Shown in pieces: positions 4,968-57,723 of a stretch of 64,000 nucleotides of DNA (the stretch's first letter is position 1; each line of letters begins with the position of its first letter). The DNA is taken from contig OZ024876.1 of the NCBI GenBank assembly GCA_964017185.1, positions 13,331,726 through 13,395,725 on the forward strand. The letters are read 5' to 3'. The notes under the pieces are model-generated. The model did no database searches. It was not told where the DNA came from and was given only the letters and a program-made list of their open reading frames with translations. The DNA comes from Rugalucina vietnamica. Taxonomy: Eukaryota > Mollusca > Bivalvia > Lucinida > Lucinidae. A program made the position numbers and the translations under genes.

Positions 4968-5280
4968 GCCGAAGGCTCACACGTGAACTTATATACCCAT
5001 GCTCTGGTGGTCGTTGCCGTCGTTGTCCACCGAGCCAATCAAAGCCAAACCTCACGTGGAGCATCTTTAGGAAGGGGGGACAATGTTTATATAAAGACCC
5101 AGGTCACATGACCAAGATGGCCGCCAGGACTAATAATAGCACAAATTAAAAAAAAAACTTTATCCCTTGAACCAGTGAACCGATTTCAACAAAACCTGAT
5201 ATGTAGCATCGGGAACTCTTGCCCATTATAAACAAGTTTTACTATATAAAAGTGGGGTACAAGGTGGTACACATTTCACG
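4968..5280 (-). mobile_element. R6 element, reverse orientation
   Basis: Starts with CTGAGCCGAAGGCTCACACG (the R6 terminal hairpin, degenerate) and contains GCCAATCAAAGCC and GTCACATGACCAAGATGGCC, which are R6 phrases read on the other strand. Confidence 0.7.
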
Positions 5281-21242: not shown

Positions 21243-21565
21243 TTAATCATCGAGTTCAACAAGGTAATGCCATTTCGTAATAAGATGACCCGGATTTGCG
21301 AGAATTTCGTTCCAATGTTCGAATTCACTCGCTTCCGTTGATCCAAATCCGAGTTGCATTCGACCGATGACGTCATCACTGCGTATTCGGTCGTGGTCAA
21401 ATACTAAAATGTTGAGCGACGTAACTGATAGATCGTCCATCTTGGGTGATATGGTGAAGGTGAAGGTCTCTTCGAAAACCGGATGTGACGTCTTTTTCTT
21501 CGTTGTAGTTTGTCTCTTGGACGCCTGATTAGACGATTGTGAAACTTCAACCCGGACATAAGGGT
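21243..21565 (-). CDS. Synaptotagmin-like C2 domain protein, last coding exon
   Basis: This exon encodes the main part of a C2 domain and the C-terminus. Read on the minus strand, an acceptor (TTAATCTGTTTCAG) is followed by a phase-1 start that completes an Asp codon begun in the previous exon: D-PYVRVEVS, then KRQTTTKKKTSHPVFEETF, LNILVFDHDRIRSDDVIG, FEHWNEILANP and KWHYLVELDD, stop at 21243-21245. The order matches the C2B domain of synaptotagmins, including the C-terminal WHxL motif. The three loop-3 Asp residues (FDHD and the last Asp of SDD) and the Asp of DPYV are present, while the first loop-1 Asp is replaced by Gln (LPQHQLTG), so calcium binding may be altered. Synaptotagmins act in vesicle trafficking. 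I cannot assign the subfamily. The R1 MITE starts 15 bp downstream. Confidence 0.88.
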
Positions 21566-21683
21566 CTGAAACAGATTAAGGAACATTCATTTTATTATTG
21601 AGGTAATTCTCATATGGTTTGACGGCTTCAAATAATAGATCAACATTTATTTATTGGCTCCTGTAAACGTGGCTTATGACCTA

Positions 21684-21835: not shown

Positions 21836-22276
21836 CCCAATTGGCGTTTGACAGCTGAGAAATACTTCTCTGTTAACGCATTTCACAACAAACGCTGCCT
21901 CTTATTGAGGTTTGTACCATTATTCTATAGTGGCCGCATTGTTTATTGTCACCTCCCCGTCACCAAGTGTGCCCCGTTTTAACTGTTTAGTTAACGGAAC
22001 TCGGAACCAAAAATGACCTTTGCCCAGACATGTTTACAAAATGCATTATAATAAGGCCATGGCAGCTGAAAAATTGGCGTTTCAAGATCATTACGCCGGC
22101 CCGTTGTAGTTGCAAATTCGTCGATACACATACGTAGGTCATTCAAAAAGTAATGCAATATGAAGCGTATTTTTGTGTATTTTTATCTGACAGAGGTAAT
22201 GTTTTCAATTTTTGAAAGTTTGATTCAATCTGCATTCAGGAAATAAACATCAACTAAATCGGACCATACACTTCAT

Positions 22277-22289
22277 GTTACTTAGCAAC
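22277..22289. promoter_or_regulatory. X-box-like motif 1
   Basis: GTTACTTAGCAAC: two half-sites arranged as in the RFX X-box consensus GTNRCC-N(0-3)-RGYAAC, with one deviation in the left half. Confidence 0.5.
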
Positions 22290-22478
22290 CATAGAATGAC
22301 AGCCAAGGTGTCATGGCCGCGAAAACCACTTTTCAAAAATCAATTAAATAAACATAAAGCTTTGGTATTTCTTTGCTGGTGTTTTAAATATCTATCTTTT
22401 AACATGTTTGTGTAATGTCACCTTAGCCAGAACTTTCTAGGCAACTGCAATGTTCATACAGCCCCACACGTGTCAGCT

Positions 22479-22491
22479 GTTGCTTAGCAAC
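22479..22491. promoter_or_regulatory. X-box-like motif 2
   Basis: GTTGCTTAGCAAC. The outer GTTGC/GCAAC arms are perfect inverted repeats. Confidence 0.55.
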
Positions 22492-22537
22492 GCCAGAACC
22501 TATGCAATTTTGATTTATGCATTTTTCATAGATTTTG

Positions 22538-22550
22538 GTTGCTAGGCAAC
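22538..22550. promoter_or_regulatory. X-box-like motif 3
   Basis: GTTGCTAGGCAAC. Perfect GTTGC/GCAAC arms around TAG. Confidence 0.55.
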
Positions 22551-22845
22551 GAACTATGTTATCTGAGAATTGCATTTTATAGCAAGTAGTTCACAATGCG
22601 TCAATGGCAGAAATAAATAGGTGTATACATATTTGATTAAACAGACTAGATGTAAAATTGTAGCAGAAATTGTATCTCTACCCCCATTTTTCACCCTTCG
22701 AAAGAGAAATTTTAGTCATTTTTTCAACTTTGATTGGTTGTCATTTAAAATATATCGATCAGATTACATTATCTTGAACACTAAATGCAACTATTTTAAG
22801 TTCGGTGTAAGAAAATAAAGTGAATATGTTTAATTTGGTTTTCCT

Positions 22846-22859
22846 GTTACCATGGCAAC
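22846..22859. promoter_or_regulatory. X-box motif 4, full consensus
   Basis: GTTACCATGGCAAC fits the RFX consensus GTNRCC-N(0-3)-RGYAAC in both halves with a two-base spacer. It is the strongest of the five. Confidence 0.65.
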
Positions 22860-22903
22860 GGTTTTTAGAGTCGTGGCCAAGTGCCTTTTCCCAGTGTTCT
22901 ATT

Positions 22904-22916
22904 GTTGCTAGGCAAC
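22904..22916. promoter_or_regulatory. X-box-like motif 5
   Basis: GTTGCTAGGCAAC, identical to motif 3, 45 bp from motif 4. Confidence 0.55.
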
Positions 22917-23380
22917 AGGAAGTCGAGCATGTGACTAGGTGTTGAACTGTCTCGCAGAGGGCAAATTGAATTTATGTTTCAAGAAAGCTAAATCAAACTT
23001 TAATAACGTGTTCAAACAAAAATTTATGGTCAATATTGCATTACTTATTGAATGACCCTCGTATATTTGTTTCTTATGTTTTGTTTCTTTCCTTGATTTA
23101 TTTTTTAAACTAAACAATTCAGGGCTATCTAAATTCCACCATCGTACAAACATTTATTGCAATTTATTCAAATATATTTACATTTTTCCAAAACCTCATT
23201 AGATAAACCATTAGATGTTCATCTGTGTTCATACTTCCATGAACAACATTGCGTCACGCGACGTGACGTAATCCAAACTTGCCGTCAAAAACATGACTTT
23301 CGCCAATCTGATTGGACGTTGTAAACGTCGACGCCGTTCCGCTGTTTGAACACACACTGTGTGTAGATTCTCTGTTTGCT

Positions 23381-23704
23381 GGTAAATCTGACCGCCTTGG
23401 TGATTTATCAACAAGCGATAGAGAGAAATGAATGTAAATATAAGCAATGAGTTTAATTTTTCTGTTGTTCATGGAGCTATGAACCGCAGTGGGTCGCTAG
23501 CAAAGCTTACATGAACCCCTTCGGGGTTCATTCACTTTGCACGGTAAATGTGACCGCCTTGGTGATTTGTCAACAAGCGATAGTAAGAAATGAATGTAAA
23601 TATAAGCAATGAGTTTAATTTTTCTGTTGTTCATGGAGCTATGAACCGCAGTGGGTCGCTAGCAAAGCTTACATGAACCCCTTCGGGGTTCATTCACTTT
23701 GCAC
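23381..23704. repeat. Tandem duplication 2 x 162 bp with nested hairpins
   Basis: Copies 23381-23542 and 23543-23704 are aligned without gaps at a 162 bp period and differ at about five positions. Each holds the hairpin TGAACCCCTTCGGGGTTCA. The second copy also pairs with 23705-23737 (GCGACCCACAGCGG and TTCATAGCTCCATGAAC are complementary to TTCATGGAGCTATGAACCGC and GTGGGTCGC). Lies in the intron. Confidence 0.9.
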
Positions 23705-23759
23705 GCGACCCACAGCGGTTCATAGCTCCATGAACACCAGAAAAATGAAATTCATTTCT

Positions 23760-25416: not shown

Positions 25417-25528
25417 CTGGAGGTCCCGTTAACTGATGCTGGGGCAGCGCCTTAGCCTGGTCTATCATCACGTGTAGAAGTCCATCTCGGGGTTCGAACC
25501 TCACTCCTACAGATATAAACCCGAGATC
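25417..25528 (-). CDS. Synaptotagmin-like C2 domain protein, penultimate coding exon
   Basis: On the minus strand a pyrimidine-rich acceptor (TCTTTTTTGCAG) precedes 37 codons plus one base, then donor GTTTGT. The product begins DLGFISVGVRFEPRDG and ends ALPQHQLTGPP, which is the first two strands and loop 1 of a C2 domain; joined to the next exon it reads PP-DPYVRV, exactly as C2 domains do. The pair of exons gives about 144 residues, the usual length of a synaptotagmin C2B module. The upstream exons (C2A, linker, membrane segment) should lie at higher coordinates on the minus strand, but I could not identify them here. An R4 tail begins 31 bp upstream of the acceptor, inside the preceding intron. 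Confidence 0.87.
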
Positions 25529-25558
25529 CTGCAAAAAAGAGAGAAAAAAGTACATTAA

Positions 25559-37316: not shown

Positions 37317-38315
37317 ACTAAAAAGGGTGCCCCCAAAAACGCGCAACCGCTACTAAACAGCGAATAACCTTTTTAATAATACATATAAGTAAGATATTTA
37401 ACACAGTAGTAGTTCTATTATATTTCATCCTAAATCTGACACCCGTTTTGCTAGGCGGTTCTTCAACAGGAACTGACGTCATAGCAAATGTGCGATGTCA
37501 TTTCCTAATGTCTGTTGCAATGTGCATTCCTAGAAATGCAGAAAAGTTAACCAAATACAATCTACAACAGTTCTCAAGCCTTTAGTCTCTCTTAAAAGTG
37601 GTATAACATTGAGGAAATTGCCAAAATAATCAGAAAATTAACAGAGCTAATTCAAAAAGTAATTTGCTGAATTTCAATGAAAATAATATTCCAAAATAGG
37701 AAGTGGGCGACCATAAAAATGACATGTAAAATTTGCAATACTCCGAAAGCAGTCATTTGCAATATAGTCGGTCATTCCGGATATAGGTGGAGTATATAAC
37801 AACCATTCTATTTGAAGACATCGTCTGCTAAGTTTGATTTAGTTATCTGTAAAAATGAAGTAAATAGAAAACAGGCATTTTAGCGGGTACATTCTTATAG
37901 GAAATTTTACATGACACTTTTGAAAAGATCTTTGATGGTCATGTACTTCCCATTTTGTAATTTCATGCATTTTTAGCAAACGCTGCCCCTTTTTGAACAC
38001 GCTTCCTTAGGTTTCAGTTAATTATGGCAACTTCATCCATATCTTATCCATTTTAAGAGAGAATTAATGCTTGAGAACGCTTGAAAAAGGCATTTTCCAT
38101 TTCCAGGATTGCTAGTTGCAACAGACAACAGGAAGTAACATCACATATTTGTTATGACGCCACTTTCTGTTAAAAACCGCCTAGCAAACCGGGTGTCAGA
38201 TTAAGGATCAAATATAATACAACTACTATTGCGTTAAATATATTATTTATATCTGTATTATTGAAAAAGTTATGCACTGTTTAGTAGCGGTTGTGTTTTT
38301 TTCGGACACCCTGTA
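37317..38315. mobile_element. 1 kb foldback element with 300+ bp inverted arms
   Basis: The left arm (37317 to about 37660) and the right arm (about 37990 to 38313) are imperfect complements: AACCGCTACTAAACAG, AATCTGACACCCG, TTGCTAGGCGGTT and GTCTGTTGCAA on the left all recur inverted on the right. The tips resemble AGGGTG(T/C)CC and TA flanks the right end, as in mariner-type elements. No transposase frame is visible, so it is a non-autonomous foldback. Confidence 0.82.
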
Positions 38316-50805: not shown

Positions 50806-53545
50806 ACCAATGAAAGTCTATGCATGGACACTATTGACCCCCGGGGCATGGCCAAATTTGACCCAGGGGCATGACTGGCACAATTTATAATGGGGACTAT
50901 CAAACATTGCTATATACAAAATATAGAAGCTCTGGGCCTTTTGGTTTCAGAGAAGAAGAGTTTTTTAATTTTTCCCATTGTAAGTCTATGGAGACTATCT
51001 ACCCCCGGGGCGTGGCCAAATTTGACCCCAGGGGCATGGCTGGCACAATTTATGTAGAGGACCATTAGCCATTGCCACATACAAAATATCAAAGCTGTGT
51101 GCCCTGTGGTTTCAGAGAAGAAGATTTTTGAATTTTCTTCCCATAGCAAGTCTACTGAGACTATCAACCTCCGGGGCCTGGCCAAATTTGACCCCAGGGG
51201 CATGAATGGCACAATTTATGTAGAGGACCATTAGCCATTGCTACATACCAAATAACAAAGCTGTGGGCCCTGTGGTTTCAGAGAAGAAGATTTTTTATTT
51301 TTTTTTTCCCATAGTAAGTCTATGGAGACTATCAACCCCCGGGGCGTGGCCAAATTTGACCCCAGGGGCATGAATGGCATAATTTATGTAGAAGACCATT
51401 AGCCATTGCTACATACCAAATATCAAAGCTGTTGGCCTAGTGGTTTCAGAGAAGAAGATTTTTTTAGTTTTTCCCATTGTAGGTCTATGGAGACTATCGA
51501 CCCCCGGGGCGTGGCCAAATTTGACCCCAGGGGCATGATTGGCATAATTTATGTAGAGGACCATTAGCCATTACCACATACAAAATATCAAAGCTGTGGG
51601 CCCTGTGGTTTCAGAGAAGAAGATTTTTTATTTTTTTTCCCATAGTAAGTCTATGGAGACTAACAACCCCTGGGGCGTGGCCAAATTTGACCCCAGGGGC
51701 ATGAATGGCACAATTTATGTAGAGGACCATTAGCCATTGCTACATACCAAATATCAAAGCTGTGGGCCTAGTGGTTTCAGAGAAGAAGATTTTTTTAGTT
51801 TTTAGTTTTTCCTATTGTAGGTCTATGGAGACTATCGACCCCCGGGGCGTGGCCAATTTTGACCCCGGGGACATGATTGGCACAATTTATGTAGAGGACC
51901 ATTAGCCATTGCCACATACCAAATATCAAAGCTGTGGGCCCTGTGGTTTCAGAGAAGAAGATTTTTTATTTTTTTTTTTTCCCATAGTAAGTCTATGGAG
52001 ACTATCAACCCCCGGGGCGTGGCCAAATTTGACCCCAGGGGCATGAATGGCATAATTTATGTAGAAGACCATTAGCCATTGCTACATACCAAATATCAAA
52101 GCTGTTGGCCTAGTGGTTTCAGAGAAGAAGATTTTTTTAGTTTTTCCCATTGTAGGTCTATGGAGACTATCGACCCCCGGGGCGTGGCCAAATTTGACCC
52201 CAGGGGCATGATTGGCATAATTTATGTAGAGGACCATTAGCCATTACCACATACAAAATATCAAAGCTGTGGGCCCTGTGGTTTCAGAGAAGAAGATTTT
52301 TTATTTTTTTTCCCATAGTAAGTCTATGGAGACTATCAACCCCTGGGGCGTGGCCAAATTTGACCCCAGGGGCATGAATGGCACAATTTATGTAGAGGAC
52401 CATTAGCCATTGCTACATACCAAATATCAAAGCTGTGGGCCTAGTGGTTTCAGAGAAGAAGATTTTTTTAGTTTTTCCAATTGTAAGTGGCCAAATTTGA
52501 CCCCAGGGGCATGGCTGGTTATAACTTGAATGTTATGCGACAGTCTGCATGCTTAGTTTTTAACCCAATCATGGTTGATAACTATGCTGCCTTCTTTAAT
52601 TGCACGCCGGTGGGTCGGGCGTCAGACTCTATGATGGCCCCGACATAAAGCTATTCATTTTAGTTGGTTGGGGCCGGAGCTTCTTGTCTGTTGCTTGGCC
52701 CACCGGGGTCCAACTGGTGTTTTTCTTTTGCTCCGGAGTTAGTAGGTTATTCGGCGCCCAGGGATCTCCATCGTCGGGCAGCTTACTCAGTCTGTGAGTC
52801 CTGGTTTTTGATTCATCAGGATGTTTACCATGATTTATTTGTTTGTTCTTGATGATTCATTGACTAGTTAGAGATTCACCACGAGGGCCGAATAACTAAC
52901 TAAATGTTATGAACCACTGCAGAAGCTGAGGGTGAGGTTATGGCCATGTAAAACCGGTTTAAGCCCGCCAGTAACTTTGTGTTACTGATCGTTCCGAGTC
53001 GATACTTCTGTGGTGGTTCTTTTTGTTTTATGTCTTGGTGTTTGGAAAATTTTTTGTGCTGTTGGCGCCTTATGTGTGTTTTCATATTTTTAGTTAAGTT
53101 AAGGTAACTGAGTGGCCACCTATTGGGAAAATAGCTGCTCATTCGGCTTACGATATGTTTCGTGGTATAAGTACCTGACTGTTAGTTTGGTTTTTTTCCC
53201 ACCTCGGTTTTTGGAGTGGGAATCTTTTTCTGATTGAGCCTTTTCCTGATCTTTGCCTACTTGTACCTCTTTATGTAGAGGACTATTAGCCATTGCCACA
53301 TACCAAATATCAAAGCTGTGGGTCCTGTGGTTTCAGAGAAGAAGATTTTTAAATTTTTTCCCATAGTAAGTCTATGGAGACTATCGACCCCCGGGGCGTG
53401 GCCAAATTTGACCCCAGGGGCATGAATGGCACAATTTATGTAGAGGACCATTAGCCATTGCTACATACCAAATATCAAAGCTGTGGGCCTAGTGGTTTCA
53501 GAGAAGAAGATTTTTTTAGTTTTTCCCATTGTAAGTCTATGGGAC
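50806..53545 (+). repeat. Tandem array, about 12 units of roughly 167 bp
   Basis: Each unit holds GTCTATGGAGACTATC, CCCCCGGGGCGTGGCC, AAATTTGACCCCAGGGGCAT, TTTATGTAGAGGACCATTAG, TACATACCAAATATCAAAGC and GTGGTTTCAGAGAAGAAGAT. Units are 163-172 bp. The segments 51308-51800 and 51981-52473 are offset by exactly 673 bp (four units) and I found one difference between them, so a four-unit block was recently duplicated. The array is cut by an R4 tail at 52513-53272. Confidence 0.93.
52513..53272 (+). mobile_element. R4 retroelement, young, inserted in the tandem array
   Basis: Starts TTATAACTTGAATGTTATGC inside the RT C-terminal remnant (TPVGRASDSMM frame) and ends CTACTTGTACC. The array unit breaks after GGGGCATGGCTGG and resumes at TTTATGTAGAGGAC; six bases expected between them (CACAAT-like) are missing, so no clear target duplication remains. 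Confidence 0.9.
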
Positions 53546-53551
53546 CTATCT

Positions 53552-53565
53552 GTTGCCATGGAAAC
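53552..53565. promoter_or_regulatory. X-box-like motif in R6
   Basis: GTTGCCATGGAAAC: an RFX X-box with one deviation in the right half. It lies in the R6 3' part just after the tandem array. Confidence 0.35.
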
Positions 53566-55855: not shown

Positions 55856-55896
55856 AATAGTTCGCAGTGGTAAGTGTATGGTTGTGCGTATAATGT

Positions 55897-57723
55897 TTGG
55901 ACTGTTGCTTATGTGTGCCATATTCATACATAACTATGTTGTTAGATGAATTTCCTACCGTTACGGAAACAAGAAAAGCAGTTCAACAACTATCATCTGG
56001 CAAAGCCCCAGGTGCAGATGCAATTCCTGCCGAAGTTTACAAGGCTGGGGGGCTACCCATGGCAGAGAAACTGACAGAGTTGTTTCACTGTATGTGGAGG
56101 AAGGAGGCTATCCCACAAGAATTTAAGGATGCATCCATAATCCACCTATACAAGCGGAAAGGAAATCCTCAAGTCTGTGACAATCACAGAGGCATCTCCC
56201 TCCTATCAATTGCTGGGAAGATACTTGCAAAAATTCTGTTAAATCGTCTGAATGCTCATCTTGATCAGACGGGACTTATCCCAGAAAGTCAATGTGGATT
56301 CAGAAAAGACAGAGGGACAATAGACATGATCTTCACAGCAAGACAGCTTCAGGAGAAATGCCAAGAACAGAATGTAGATCTATACATGACGTTTGTTGAC
56401 CTCACCAAAGCTTTTGACACTGTTAGTCGTGATGGACTCTGGAAAATCATGGCCAAGTTTGGCTGTCCACCCAGATTCATAGCTATGGTGCGGCAGTTTC
56501 ATGATGGCATGCAGGCACGTGTGCAAAATGATGGAGAGTTCTCTGAACCATTTGAAGTAACAAATGGGGTCAAACAAGGCTGTGTTCTGGCACCAACACT
56601 GTTCAGCATGATGTTTTCTGCCATGCTTATGGATGCTTTTCAGGACAGTGACACTGGTTTTCCAATCAGGTACCGTTTTGATGGCGACATATTCAACCTC
56701 AGAAGGTTGCAAGCCAAAACTAAGGTTCAGACTGATGTGCTAGATGAGCTCCTCTATGCAGATGATATGGATAAGAATGCCAACACAGAGGCAAAAATGC
56801 AAAGAGCCATGGATCAAGTCTCACAGTCATGTGATAACTATGATCTCACAATCAGCACAAAAAAGACAGAGGTTGTACACCAACCAGCCCCCGGAAAACC
56901 ATATAATGAACCAACCATCACTGTGAATGGGCAAAAACTGAAAGTTGTTGACAAGTTCACCTACCTGGGAAGCACTCTCTCCAGAGCAGTGCATATTGAT
57001 GATGAGATCACTGCCAGAATTGCAAAAGCTAGTGTGGCATTCGGAAGACTCCGTGCAAATGTCTGGGAGCGAAATGGAATCAAGCTTGACACCAAGCTGA
57101 AAGTCTACAAGGCTGTGGTACTGCCAACCCTCTTGTATGCATGTGAGACCTGGACAGTATACCAACGCCATGCAAAGAGACTTAACCATTTCCACTTAAG
57201 CTGTTTGAGAAAGTTGTTAAAAATCAAGTGGCAGGACAAGATTCCAGACACAGAGGTCCTGAGGAAAGCAGGGATGCAAAGCATGCATACAGTCTTAAAG
57301 CTAGCACAGCTAAGATGGACTGGCCATGTTATAAGAATGCCTGATGCGCGACTTCCAAAGAAAGTTTTCTATGGAGAACTACAGGAGGGAAAGCGCTCTC
57401 AAGGTGGCCAGAAGAAACGCTACAAAGACACCCTCAAAGCCTCTCTGAAGGATTTCGAAATACCAATGGGGTCCTGGGAACAGACCGCGCAGGAGCGATC
57501 AAAGTGGCGAGGTCTCATCAACAAAGGAGCAGCTCTCTATGAAAAGAAGAGAATCTGTGAAGCTGAAAGAAAGCGAAGAGAGCGCAAAGCCAAAACAATT
57601 GTGCCACCAGCAGACTCTATGACATTGACTTGCTCTACTTGCAACCGACAGTTTAGAGCCAGAATTGGCCTAGTCAGCCATCAAAGAACTCACCAACACA
57701 CATCAGCACTATTCAAGAAATAA
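55897..57723 (+). CDS. Non-LTR (LINE) reverse transcriptase, 5'-truncated, with C-terminal C2H2 finger
   Basis: A 608-residue frame without stops. True homology starts near residue 16 (LDEFPTVTETRKAVQQL); the first residues come from flanking DNA, so this start is not authentic and the endonuclease part of a complete LINE is missing. RT features in order: GKAPGADAIPAEVYKAGG (35-52), NHRGISLLSIAGKIL (96-110), catalytic FVDLTKAFD (166-174), GVKQGCVLAP (224-233), catalytic YADD (287-290), YLGSTLSRA (356-364), then a long thumb-like region with LPTLLYACETWT (409-420) and RWTGHVIRMPD (473-483). The end carries one C2H2 zinc finger (Cys579, Cys582, His595, His599; CSTCNRQFRARIGLVSHQRTH spread over 579-599). 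It resembles RTE or related LINEs; clade not certain. The intact frame implies recent insertion. Confidence 0.92.
   Translation: MDCCLCVPYSYITMLLDEFPTVTETRKAVQQLSSGKAPGADAIPAEVYKAGGLPMAEKLTELFHCMWRKEAIPQEFKDASIIHLYKRKGNPQVCDNHRGISLLSIAGKILAKILLNRLNAHLDQTGLIPESQCGFRKDRGTIDMIFTARQLQEKCQEQNVDLYMTFVDLTKAFDTVSRDGLWKIMAKFGCPPRFIAMVRQFHDGMQARVQNDGEFSEPFEVTNGVKQGCVLAPTLFSMMFSAMLMDAFQDSDTGFPIRYRFDGDIFNLRRLQAKTKVQTDVLDELLYADDMDKNANTEAKMQRAMDQVSQSCDNYDLTISTKKTEVVHQPAPGKPYNEPTITVNGQKLKVVDKFTYLGSTLSRAVHIDDEITARIAKASVAFGRLRANVWERNGIKLDTKLKVYKAVVLPTLLYACETWTVYQRHAKRLNHFHLSCLRKLLKIKWQDKIPDTEVLRKAGMQSMHTVLKLAQLRWTGHVIRMPDARLPKKVFYGELQEGKRSQGGQKKRYKDTLKASLKDFEIPMGSWEQTAQERSKWRGLINKGAALYEKKRICEAERKRRERKAKTIVPPADSMTLTCSTCNRQFRARIGLVSHQRTHQHTSALFKK

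What the first reader, a model, noticed from the sequence alone, without database searches (positions are those of the whole stretch)
22133..23061. Mariner-like element carrying a cluster of five RFX X-box-like sites, inside a synaptotagmin-like intron
Seen: a TA-flanked 929 bp TIR element holds GTTACTTAGCAAC (22277), GTTGCTTAGCAAC (22479), GTTGCTAGGCAAC (22538 and 22904) and GTTACCATGGCAAC (22846). Known: GTNRCC-N(0-3)-RGYAAC is the X-box bound by RFX factors, which control ciliary genes in animals. Inference: five such sites in 640 bp is far beyond chance, and a dispersing element loaded with them could seed RFX-responsive enhancers or insulators, here in the intron of a vesicle-trafficking gene.
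Basis: partly seen in the sequence, partly recalled or inferred. Interest (0 to 1): 0.75.

Follow-up and report, generated by a model that had tools for sequence, protein, structure and literature searches.

The report
Transposon family with conserved RFX-like sites
A small non-coding jumping element, present in many copies in this animal genome, carries a row of palindromes that look like docking sites for RFX proteins, the switches of cilia genes, and these palindromes change less than the rest of the element, which suggests that the element needs them.

Summary
The 929-bp element is a non-coding mariner-type MITE: TA on both sides, inverted ends, no transposase found. All five X-box-like sites are where stated; 1000 shuffles never gave more than one. 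The own genome (1.09 Gb, unnamed) gave 638 candidate places, 40 scored; I aligned 40 copies, later 51. X-boxes change at about a third of the rate of the rest. Changes that break the RFX consensus are rarest: 10 seen, 42.3 expected, outside CpG. Four sister families carry palindromes at the same two places, 347-363 bp from the left end and 135-149 bp from the right; three of them share only 42-48% aligned identity with E1 and each other. They were met through the X-box pattern, so their letters are ascertained; their positions are not. The perfect palindrome occurs 4968 times in the genome; same-letter palindromes occur 97 and 238 times. As the element has no gene, the likeliest benefit is to its own spread, probably through a host RFX factor; a transposase site is the main rival. 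Enhancer or insulator action, and any effect on the synaptotagmin gene, are untested. Binding was not shown.

The parts
22131..22132 (.). left TA target-site duplication
   Evidence: 32 of 33 copies with both exact ends have TA on both sides
22133..23061 (.). E1: 929-bp non-coding mariner-type MITE
   Evidence: 638 candidate places in own genome, 40 scored; no Pfam hit in 6 ORF pieces
22133..22159 (+). outer left terminal inverted repeat
   Evidence: low change rate
23035..23061 (-). outer right terminal inverted repeat
   Evidence: low change rate
22133..22330 (+). left long arm, homologous to the right arm (inner limit approximate)
22861..23061 (-). right long arm (inner limit approximate)
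22277..22289 (.). X-box 1 (left-arm counterpart of 22904); majority GTTGCTTAGCAAC, here GTTAC; no counterpart at 10 of 12 in E1b or E1c
   Evidence: 4 changes vs 16.1 expected outside CpG
22433..22445 (.). weak sixth X-box-like site
   Evidence: 7 changes vs 11.2 expected
22479..22491 (.). X-box 2, the left site found in all five families (position 347 from the left end)
   Evidence: 7 vs 12.1; only rank 15 in the blind ranking
22538..22550 (.). X-box 3, shared with E1b (406 / 410)
   Evidence: 3 vs 13.7
22846..22859 (.). X-box 4 with 2-bp spacer, shared with E1b (714 / 717)
   Evidence: 3 vs 13.4
22873..22881 (+). GTGGCCAAG, exactly 22 bp before the right X-box in E1, E1b and E1c
22904..22916 (.). 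X-box 5, the right site found in all five families (135-149 bp from the right end)
   Evidence: 9 vs 15.3
23062..23063 (.). right TA target-site duplication
21246..21575 (-). synaptotagmin C2B exon of the host gene
25424..25531 (-). probable preceding C2B exon (weak)
   Evidence: tblastn E 0.58 with a recalled Syt1 fragment

Best explanation
E1 is a non-autonomous mariner-type MITE family that carries a fixed array of palindromic RFX-type X-boxes. A host RFX transcription factor binds the array, and this binding helps the element spread: by keeping copies open and reachable for transposase in RFX-expressing cells of the germ line (spermatogenic cells are the obvious candidate), or by RFX dimers bringing the two ends together. 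Shown: the array, its conservation among copies, its recurrence at the same positions in sister families, its genome-wide excess, and RFX-domain exons in the host. Inferred: RFX binding, the germ-line setting, and the benefit to transposition.
For: Copies: X-boxes 41 substitutions in 2635 cells vs 1456 in 32137 in the rest (outer ends left out). On a tree built without the X-box columns, outside CpG, 17 terminal and 4 internal changes against 38.0 and 12.1 expected by base. Breaking vs preserving the RFX consensus, outside CpG: 8 vs 29.7 expected and 13 vs 21.5 (40 copies; random placement of the mask gives 8 or fewer in a fraction 0.0002); 10 vs 42.3 and 16 vs 28.3 (51 copies). Blind ranking of 15-mers: ranks 1-3 are the outer ends, ranks 4, 5, 6 and 9 are X-boxes. 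The neighbouring ETS-like CAGGAAGT is not conserved (11 changes vs 7.1 expected). Families: the same left and right positions in E1b, E1c, E1d and E1e; E1b also has the 2-bp-spacer site at 717 against 714 in E1, a form that the search pattern does not cover. Genome: 4968 places for GTTGCYNRGCAAC vs 97 and 238 for two same-letter palindromes. RFX proteins dimerise and are proposed to scaffold loops (PMC5245798, passages); RFX2 regulates spermiogenesis in mice (PMC4498915, passages).
Against: No binding, accessibility or transposition data. Mariner transposase loci in the same genome do without the motif: 2 sites in 96,714 bases of the 30 loci fetched, so RFX cannot be a general need of mariner transposition. 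The transposase that moves E1 was not found. Sister families were met through the pattern GTTGCYNRGCAAC, so the identity of their core letters is built in; only position (and the 717 site) counts. Between families the outer ends are conserved about as well as the X-boxes (right ends differ at 2-6 of 25 letters, X-box pairs at 0-3 of 13), so a shared transposase cannot be excluded by that comparison. X-box 2, found in all five families, ranks only 15th among E1 windows. In one E1e copy picked by its ends (L125) the right site is degraded. In 10 of 10 further E1 copies the 22846 site scores below 11 of 12. Terminal-branch changes are depleted too, which selection before insertion explains only if much of those branches predates insertion. 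The window's second mariner-type MITE family (E2) does not conserve its X-box-like sites (17 changes vs 18.8 and 16 vs 18.6 expected).
Confidence: 0.45

Rival explanations
1. The palindromes are internal (subterminal) binding sites of the transposase that mobilises these families, and their likeness to X-boxes is accidental.
For: They are conserved in a gene-less element together with the ends; one pair sits symmetrically about 145 bp from both ends in E1; the outer ends of the five families are still alike (2-6 differences in 25), so one transposase could serve all.
Against: Three of the five sites lie deep inside the element; the 30 fetched loci with mariner transposase show no enrichment (2 sites in 96,714 bases); the motif is a canonical host-factor site (recalled) and substitutions that keep the RFX consensus are tolerated more than those that break it.
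Confidence: 0.21
2. The array is a host-used regulatory module (enhancer or insulator); intact copies are kept by selection on the host.
For: Terminal-branch changes in X-boxes are also few (17 vs 38.0 expected); X-boxes are said to contribute to activity of promoters and enhancers (PMC5838959, passages).
Against: The same constraint would have to act on scattered copies; the outer ends, which the host has no reason to keep, show the same depletion (8 terminal changes in 48 columns; partly an effect of choosing full-length hits). The same paper calls functional X-boxes far from start sites the exception in humans.
Confidence: 0.15
3. The array is the promoter or enhancer of a transposase gene in an autonomous parent and is only inherited by the MITEs.
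For: RFX sites occur in enhancers of several DNA viruses (PMC5760533, passages), and RFX7 was among the factors that most robustly activated several mouse transposable elements (PMC13144441, passages).
Against: No parent with these ends was found in the loci examined; the array spans 640 bp, where a mariner of about 1.27 kb holds its gene; five families of the same layout keep it without a gene seen.
Confidence: 0.1
4. The conservation is a by-product of sequence context (mutationally cold letters), sampling of the best hits, or shared recent ancestry, with no function.
For: Only the best-scoring 40 of 638 candidates were scored; base-matched rates do not capture wider context; the core letters of the sister families are ascertained by the search pattern.
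Against: Base-matched, CpG-free, tree-based counts and random placement all show the deficit; matching positions across families at 41.5-47.6% aligned identity do not come from recent ancestry.
Confidence: 0.09

Closest known systems
Tc1/mariner-type MITEs
   Same: TA duplication, inverted ends, no gene, many similar copies; the right end opens with TACGAGG like ends of transposase-bearing mariner loci in this genome
   Different: long diverged arms and a conserved internal array of X-boxes that recurs in sister families
E2F-site MITEs of Brassicaceae (Henaff et al. 2014, as cited in PMC12595863)
   Same: MITEs that multiply binding sites of one host transcription factor (about 85% of E2F motifs in TEs according to the review; passage seen)
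   Different: here a mariner-type family of an animal, RFX motif, five ordered sites per copy, and measured constraint on the motif among copies
RFX motifs amplified in pig SINEs (PMC10471783)
   Same: transposable elements of an animal multiplying RFX motifs (one passage seen)
   Different: SINEs, motifs of three RFX members; the passage reports no ordered array and no constraint test
RFX (EF-C / EP / MDBP) sites in viral enhancers
   Same: genomic parasites carrying inverted-repeat RFX sites (PMC5760533, passage seen)
   Different: viruses use them to transcribe genes; no gene was found in this element
Long-TIR transposons with several transposase sites (Galileo)
   Same: repeated protein sites inside long inverted ends (PMC3688188, listing with start of abstract only)
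   Different: here the motif is a canonical host-factor site and lies also in the centre

Membership tests
Tc1/mariner MITE | TA target-site duplication | tested here: met
   32 of 33 copies with both exact ends; 7 of the 40 copies lack an exact end and were not counted
Tc1/mariner MITE | terminal inverted repeats like those of mariners | tested here: met
   TACGAGG lead shared with ends of several of the 30 transposase loci fetched
Tc1/mariner MITE | no transposase gene | tested here: met
   18 stops in frame 1; 6 ORF pieces without a Pfam hit; shorter pieces not searched
Tc1/mariner MITE | an identified autonomous partner with the same ends | tested here: inconclusive
   30 of 150 PF01359 matches examined; no pair of E1 ends, one one-sided hit within 5 mismatches in L061 judged chance; the 10 new left-arm loci were the same MITE
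RFX X-box | match to the consensus GTNRCC-N0-3-RGYAAC (recalled) | tested here: met
   3 of 5 strictly, 2 of 5 with T for the sixth C
RFX X-box | substitution pattern follows the consensus (with Y/R at the inner letters) | tested here: met
   breaking 10 vs 42.3 expected, preserving 16 vs 28.3
RFX X-box | bound by an RFX protein | not testable with these tools
   host has RFX DNA-binding-domain exons (8 matches); no binding data
TE-derived enhancer or insulator | accessible chromatin, factor occupancy, effect on a nearby gene | not testable with these tools
   no ChIP, ATAC or expression data held

The most novel reading that the evidence does not exclude
RFX is a host cofactor on which a group of gene-less mariner-type MITE families depends: RFX dimers on the paired left and right X-boxes fold or open the element for a transposase supplied in trans, so the elements jump where RFX is made (sperm-forming cells), and as a by-product they have supplied most of the perfect palindromic X-boxes in this genome.
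Probability: 0.2. Interest if true: 0.88.

Novelty: new variant of a known kind. Interest (0 to 1): 0.7.

Why it matters
MITEs are usually treated as passive passengers that need only their ends. Here an internal array of transcription-factor-like sites is conserved nearly as well as the ends, which suggests that a host factor matters to how such elements spread. The genome holds 20 to 50 times more perfect X-box palindromes than same-letter control palindromes, and the clustered ones examined lie in these MITEs, which bears on any search for ciliary target genes by motif and on how new RFX-controlled genes could arise. Both points can be tested with standard ChIP and transposition assays.

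Tried and rejected
E2, the second long-armed mariner-type MITE of the window (37325-38314), first looked like support: it has GCCTAGCAAAC half sites and X-box-like palindromes. In 20 copies these are not conserved; its CAGGAAGT(GACGTCA) blocks are. I therefore do not claim X-boxes for mariner MITEs in general.

An argument I dropped on checking: that the ends change between families while the X-boxes do not. Right ends differ at 2-6 of the outer 25 letters and X-box pairs at 0-3 of 13, and the core letters of the sister families are fixed by the search pattern.

ETS site beside the right X-box as a composite module: rejected, 11 changes vs 7.1 expected. Generic palindromes: the element has 3 perfect six-base-arm palindromes (two of them X-boxes) against 1.5 in 300 shuffles, maximum 6, so the excess is of X-boxes, not of palindromes. 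Transposase remnant in the element: 6 ORF pieces, no Pfam hit.

Copies outside this genome: end patterns gave 0 hits in viral contigs and genome contigs; both collections hold mainly other kinds of organism. The 3 viral-contig hits of an X-box plus ETS pattern were not pursued.

Autonomous parent: not found. The 1.39-kb end pair C1:37324856-37326244 was an E1e MITE with other repeats in it. Other long pairs (about 1.5, 1.8 and 2.4 kb) could not be fetched.

Papers: ten searches, several with capped lists. None of the listed titles or abstract starts is about RFX sites in MITEs or mariner elements; pig SINEs with RFX motifs are in print (PMC10471783). Only open-licence papers are held, so this is not proof of absence. 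PMC10294476 (bivalve transposons) was looked at in passages and not used.

Full report
What is there. Window 22133-23061 is a 929-bp element flanked by TA, with near-identical outer ends and longer, diverged arms. It codes for nothing recognised. A sixth weak one lies at 22433. The sites at 22277 and 22904 are counterparts in the two arms, and the block around them is the best-matched stretch between the arms inside the outer ends (22 of 26 columns, against 56% overall). The host gene on the minus strand is a synaptotagmin by its C2B exon; the upstream exon is weakly supported.

The family. The own genome (1,089,854,562 bases, 47 contigs, unnamed) gave 638 candidate places, of which the tool scored 40; apart from the window copy these are 90-97% identical and mostly full length. 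I fetched the 39 others and aligned them with the window copy. Of 33 copies with both exact ends, 32 have TA on both sides. All 40 have 4 to 6 sites at 11 of 12 or better. Ten further copies found through the left arm are the same MITE, and each of the 10 has four such sites; the 22846 site scores lower in all 10.

X-box columns carry 41 substitutions in 2635 cells, other columns (outer ends left out) 1456 in 32137. To allow for shared ancestry I built a tree without the X-box columns and counted changes on it. Outside CpG, X-boxes have 17 terminal and 4 internal changes, against 38.0 and 12.1 expected from bases of the same kind; random windows go as low in a fraction 0.0001 and 0.0195 of trials. 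In a blind ranking of conserved 15-mers the outer ends take ranks 1-3 and X-boxes ranks 4, 5, 6 and 9; X-box 2 comes only 15th. The pattern of change follows RFX recognition: outside CpG, consensus-breaking changes are 8 against 29.7 expected, consensus-preserving ones 13 against 21.5. With 51 copies (one of them an 88% relative, L124): 10 against 42.3 and 16 against 28.3. The ETS-like neighbour shows no such deficit. Result against: the outer ends are also depleted on terminal branches, partly because full-length hits were chosen, so these counts cannot tell selection before insertion from selection after it.

Genome-wide excess. The perfect palindrome GTTGCYNRGCAAC occurs at 4968 places. A palindrome of the same letters, TGGTCYNRGACCA, occurs at 97, and its backward reading at 238. 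The backward reading of the X-box pattern gives 18, but it contains CpG and is a poor control. Of the 50 distinct X-box places listed, all at the start of one contig, 41 have another within 1 kb.

Sister families. I fetched 13 regions with clustered X-box places; the 9 isolated places of the 50 and three further clusters were not fetched. All 13 hold all or part of a MITE of this layout: E1b (L112-L116, L118, half of one in L120, and L121 at 74-77%), E1c (L122, L123), E1d (L117), E1e (L119) and an E1 relative at 88% (L124). E1b is 946 bp; its palindromes at 350, 410, 717 and 786 match those of E1 at 347, 406, 714 and 772. E1c, 967 bp, has them at 361 and 807; E1d, 947 bp, at 363 and 801. E1e has them about 359 bp from its left end and 148 bp from its right end. 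Pairwise aligned identity among E1, E1b, E1c and E1d is 41.5-47.6%. In their four-way alignment the right X-box is the best window (12 of 15 columns equal), followed by the right end (11), then the left X-box and the left end (10 each). Two cautions: the core letters of the sister families are fixed by the pattern that found them, so only positions count, with the exception of the 2-bp-spacer site at 717 in E1b, which the pattern does not cover; and MAFFT paired E1b's second palindrome with the left site of the others. The outer right ends of the five families differ at 2-6 of 25 letters and X-box pairs at 0-3 of 13, so the X-boxes are kept about as well as the ends, not clearly better. GTGGCCAAG stands exactly 22 bp before the right X-box in E1, E1b and E1c. 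E1c and E1d rest on one aligned copy each. One E1e copy chosen by its ends and odd length (L125) has the left site intact and the right site degraded.

What it is not. The 30 loci with mariner transposase that I examined (of 150 matches), several with ends TACGAGGTGTGATCAGAAAGTTC and a length near 1.27 kb, hold 2 X-box-like sites in 96,714 bases. The X-box is thus no general feature of mariners here. The window's second mariner-type MITE family, E2, conserves an ETS/CRE-like block and not its X-box-like sites.

How it most likely works. A gene-less element gains nothing from a promoter. The motif and its tolerated changes fit RFX, three of the five sites lie far from the ends, and mariner transposase loci lack the motif; this favours a host factor over the transposase, without excluding the latter. 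The genome has RFX DNA-binding-domain exons. RFX proteins form dimers and are proposed to scaffold chromatin loops (PMC5245798, passages), and RFX2 is a regulator of spermiogenesis in mice (PMC4498915, passages). My best reading is that RFX binding makes the element more mobile in germ cells, by opening it or by pairing its ends. Binding and benefit are inferred, not shown.

Known and new. MITEs that multiply host-factor sites are known in plants (E2F; PMC12595863, passages); RFX motifs amplified in pig SINEs are in print (PMC10471783, passage); RFX sites in viral enhancers are known (PMC5760533, passages); RFX7 was among factors that activated several mouse transposable elements (PMC13144441, passages). 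Ten paper searches listed nothing on RFX arrays in MITEs or mariner elements. I rate it a new variant of a known kind: the surprise is measured constraint on an ordered internal array of host-factor-like sites in a gene-less transposon, recurring in sister families.

Host. Repeat peptides in the window remind me of bivalve molluscs; this is recall, not a test.

Noticed in passing
37325-38314: Second mariner-type MITE family (E2, 990 bp here, family ends CAGGGTGTCC, about 330-bp arms, 597 candidate places, 40 scored); its four CAGGAAGT(GACGTCA) ETS/CRE-like blocks, about 140-190 bp from each end, are conserved while the rest drifts in 20 copies: a possible second case of a host-factor-like site kept by a MITE.
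   Followed up: partly
22678-22685; also L113, L117, L122: A CTACCCCC-like motif recurs inside E1, E1b, E1c and E1d; it lies in the window ranked 11th among conserved 15-mers of E1.
   Followed up: no
22873-22881: GTGGCCAAG exactly 22 bp before the right X-box in E1, E1b and E1c; role unknown.
   Followed up: partly
23381-23705: A 162-bp unit duplicated in tandem at 97%, just beyond the element in the probable same intron.
   Followed up: no
50824-52488: Ten-copy tandem array of a 166-bp unit, with a further relative at 53270-53550.
   Followed up: no
53552-53565: An isolated X-box-like GTTGCCATGGAAAC inside a repeat-like open frame.
   Followed up: no
55894-57723: Open frame of 609 aa that reads like a LINE reverse transcriptase (judged by eye, not searched).
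   Followed up: no
L011:280-292: A perfect X-box over 1 kb outside an E1 copy; could be a fragment of another copy.
   Followed up: no
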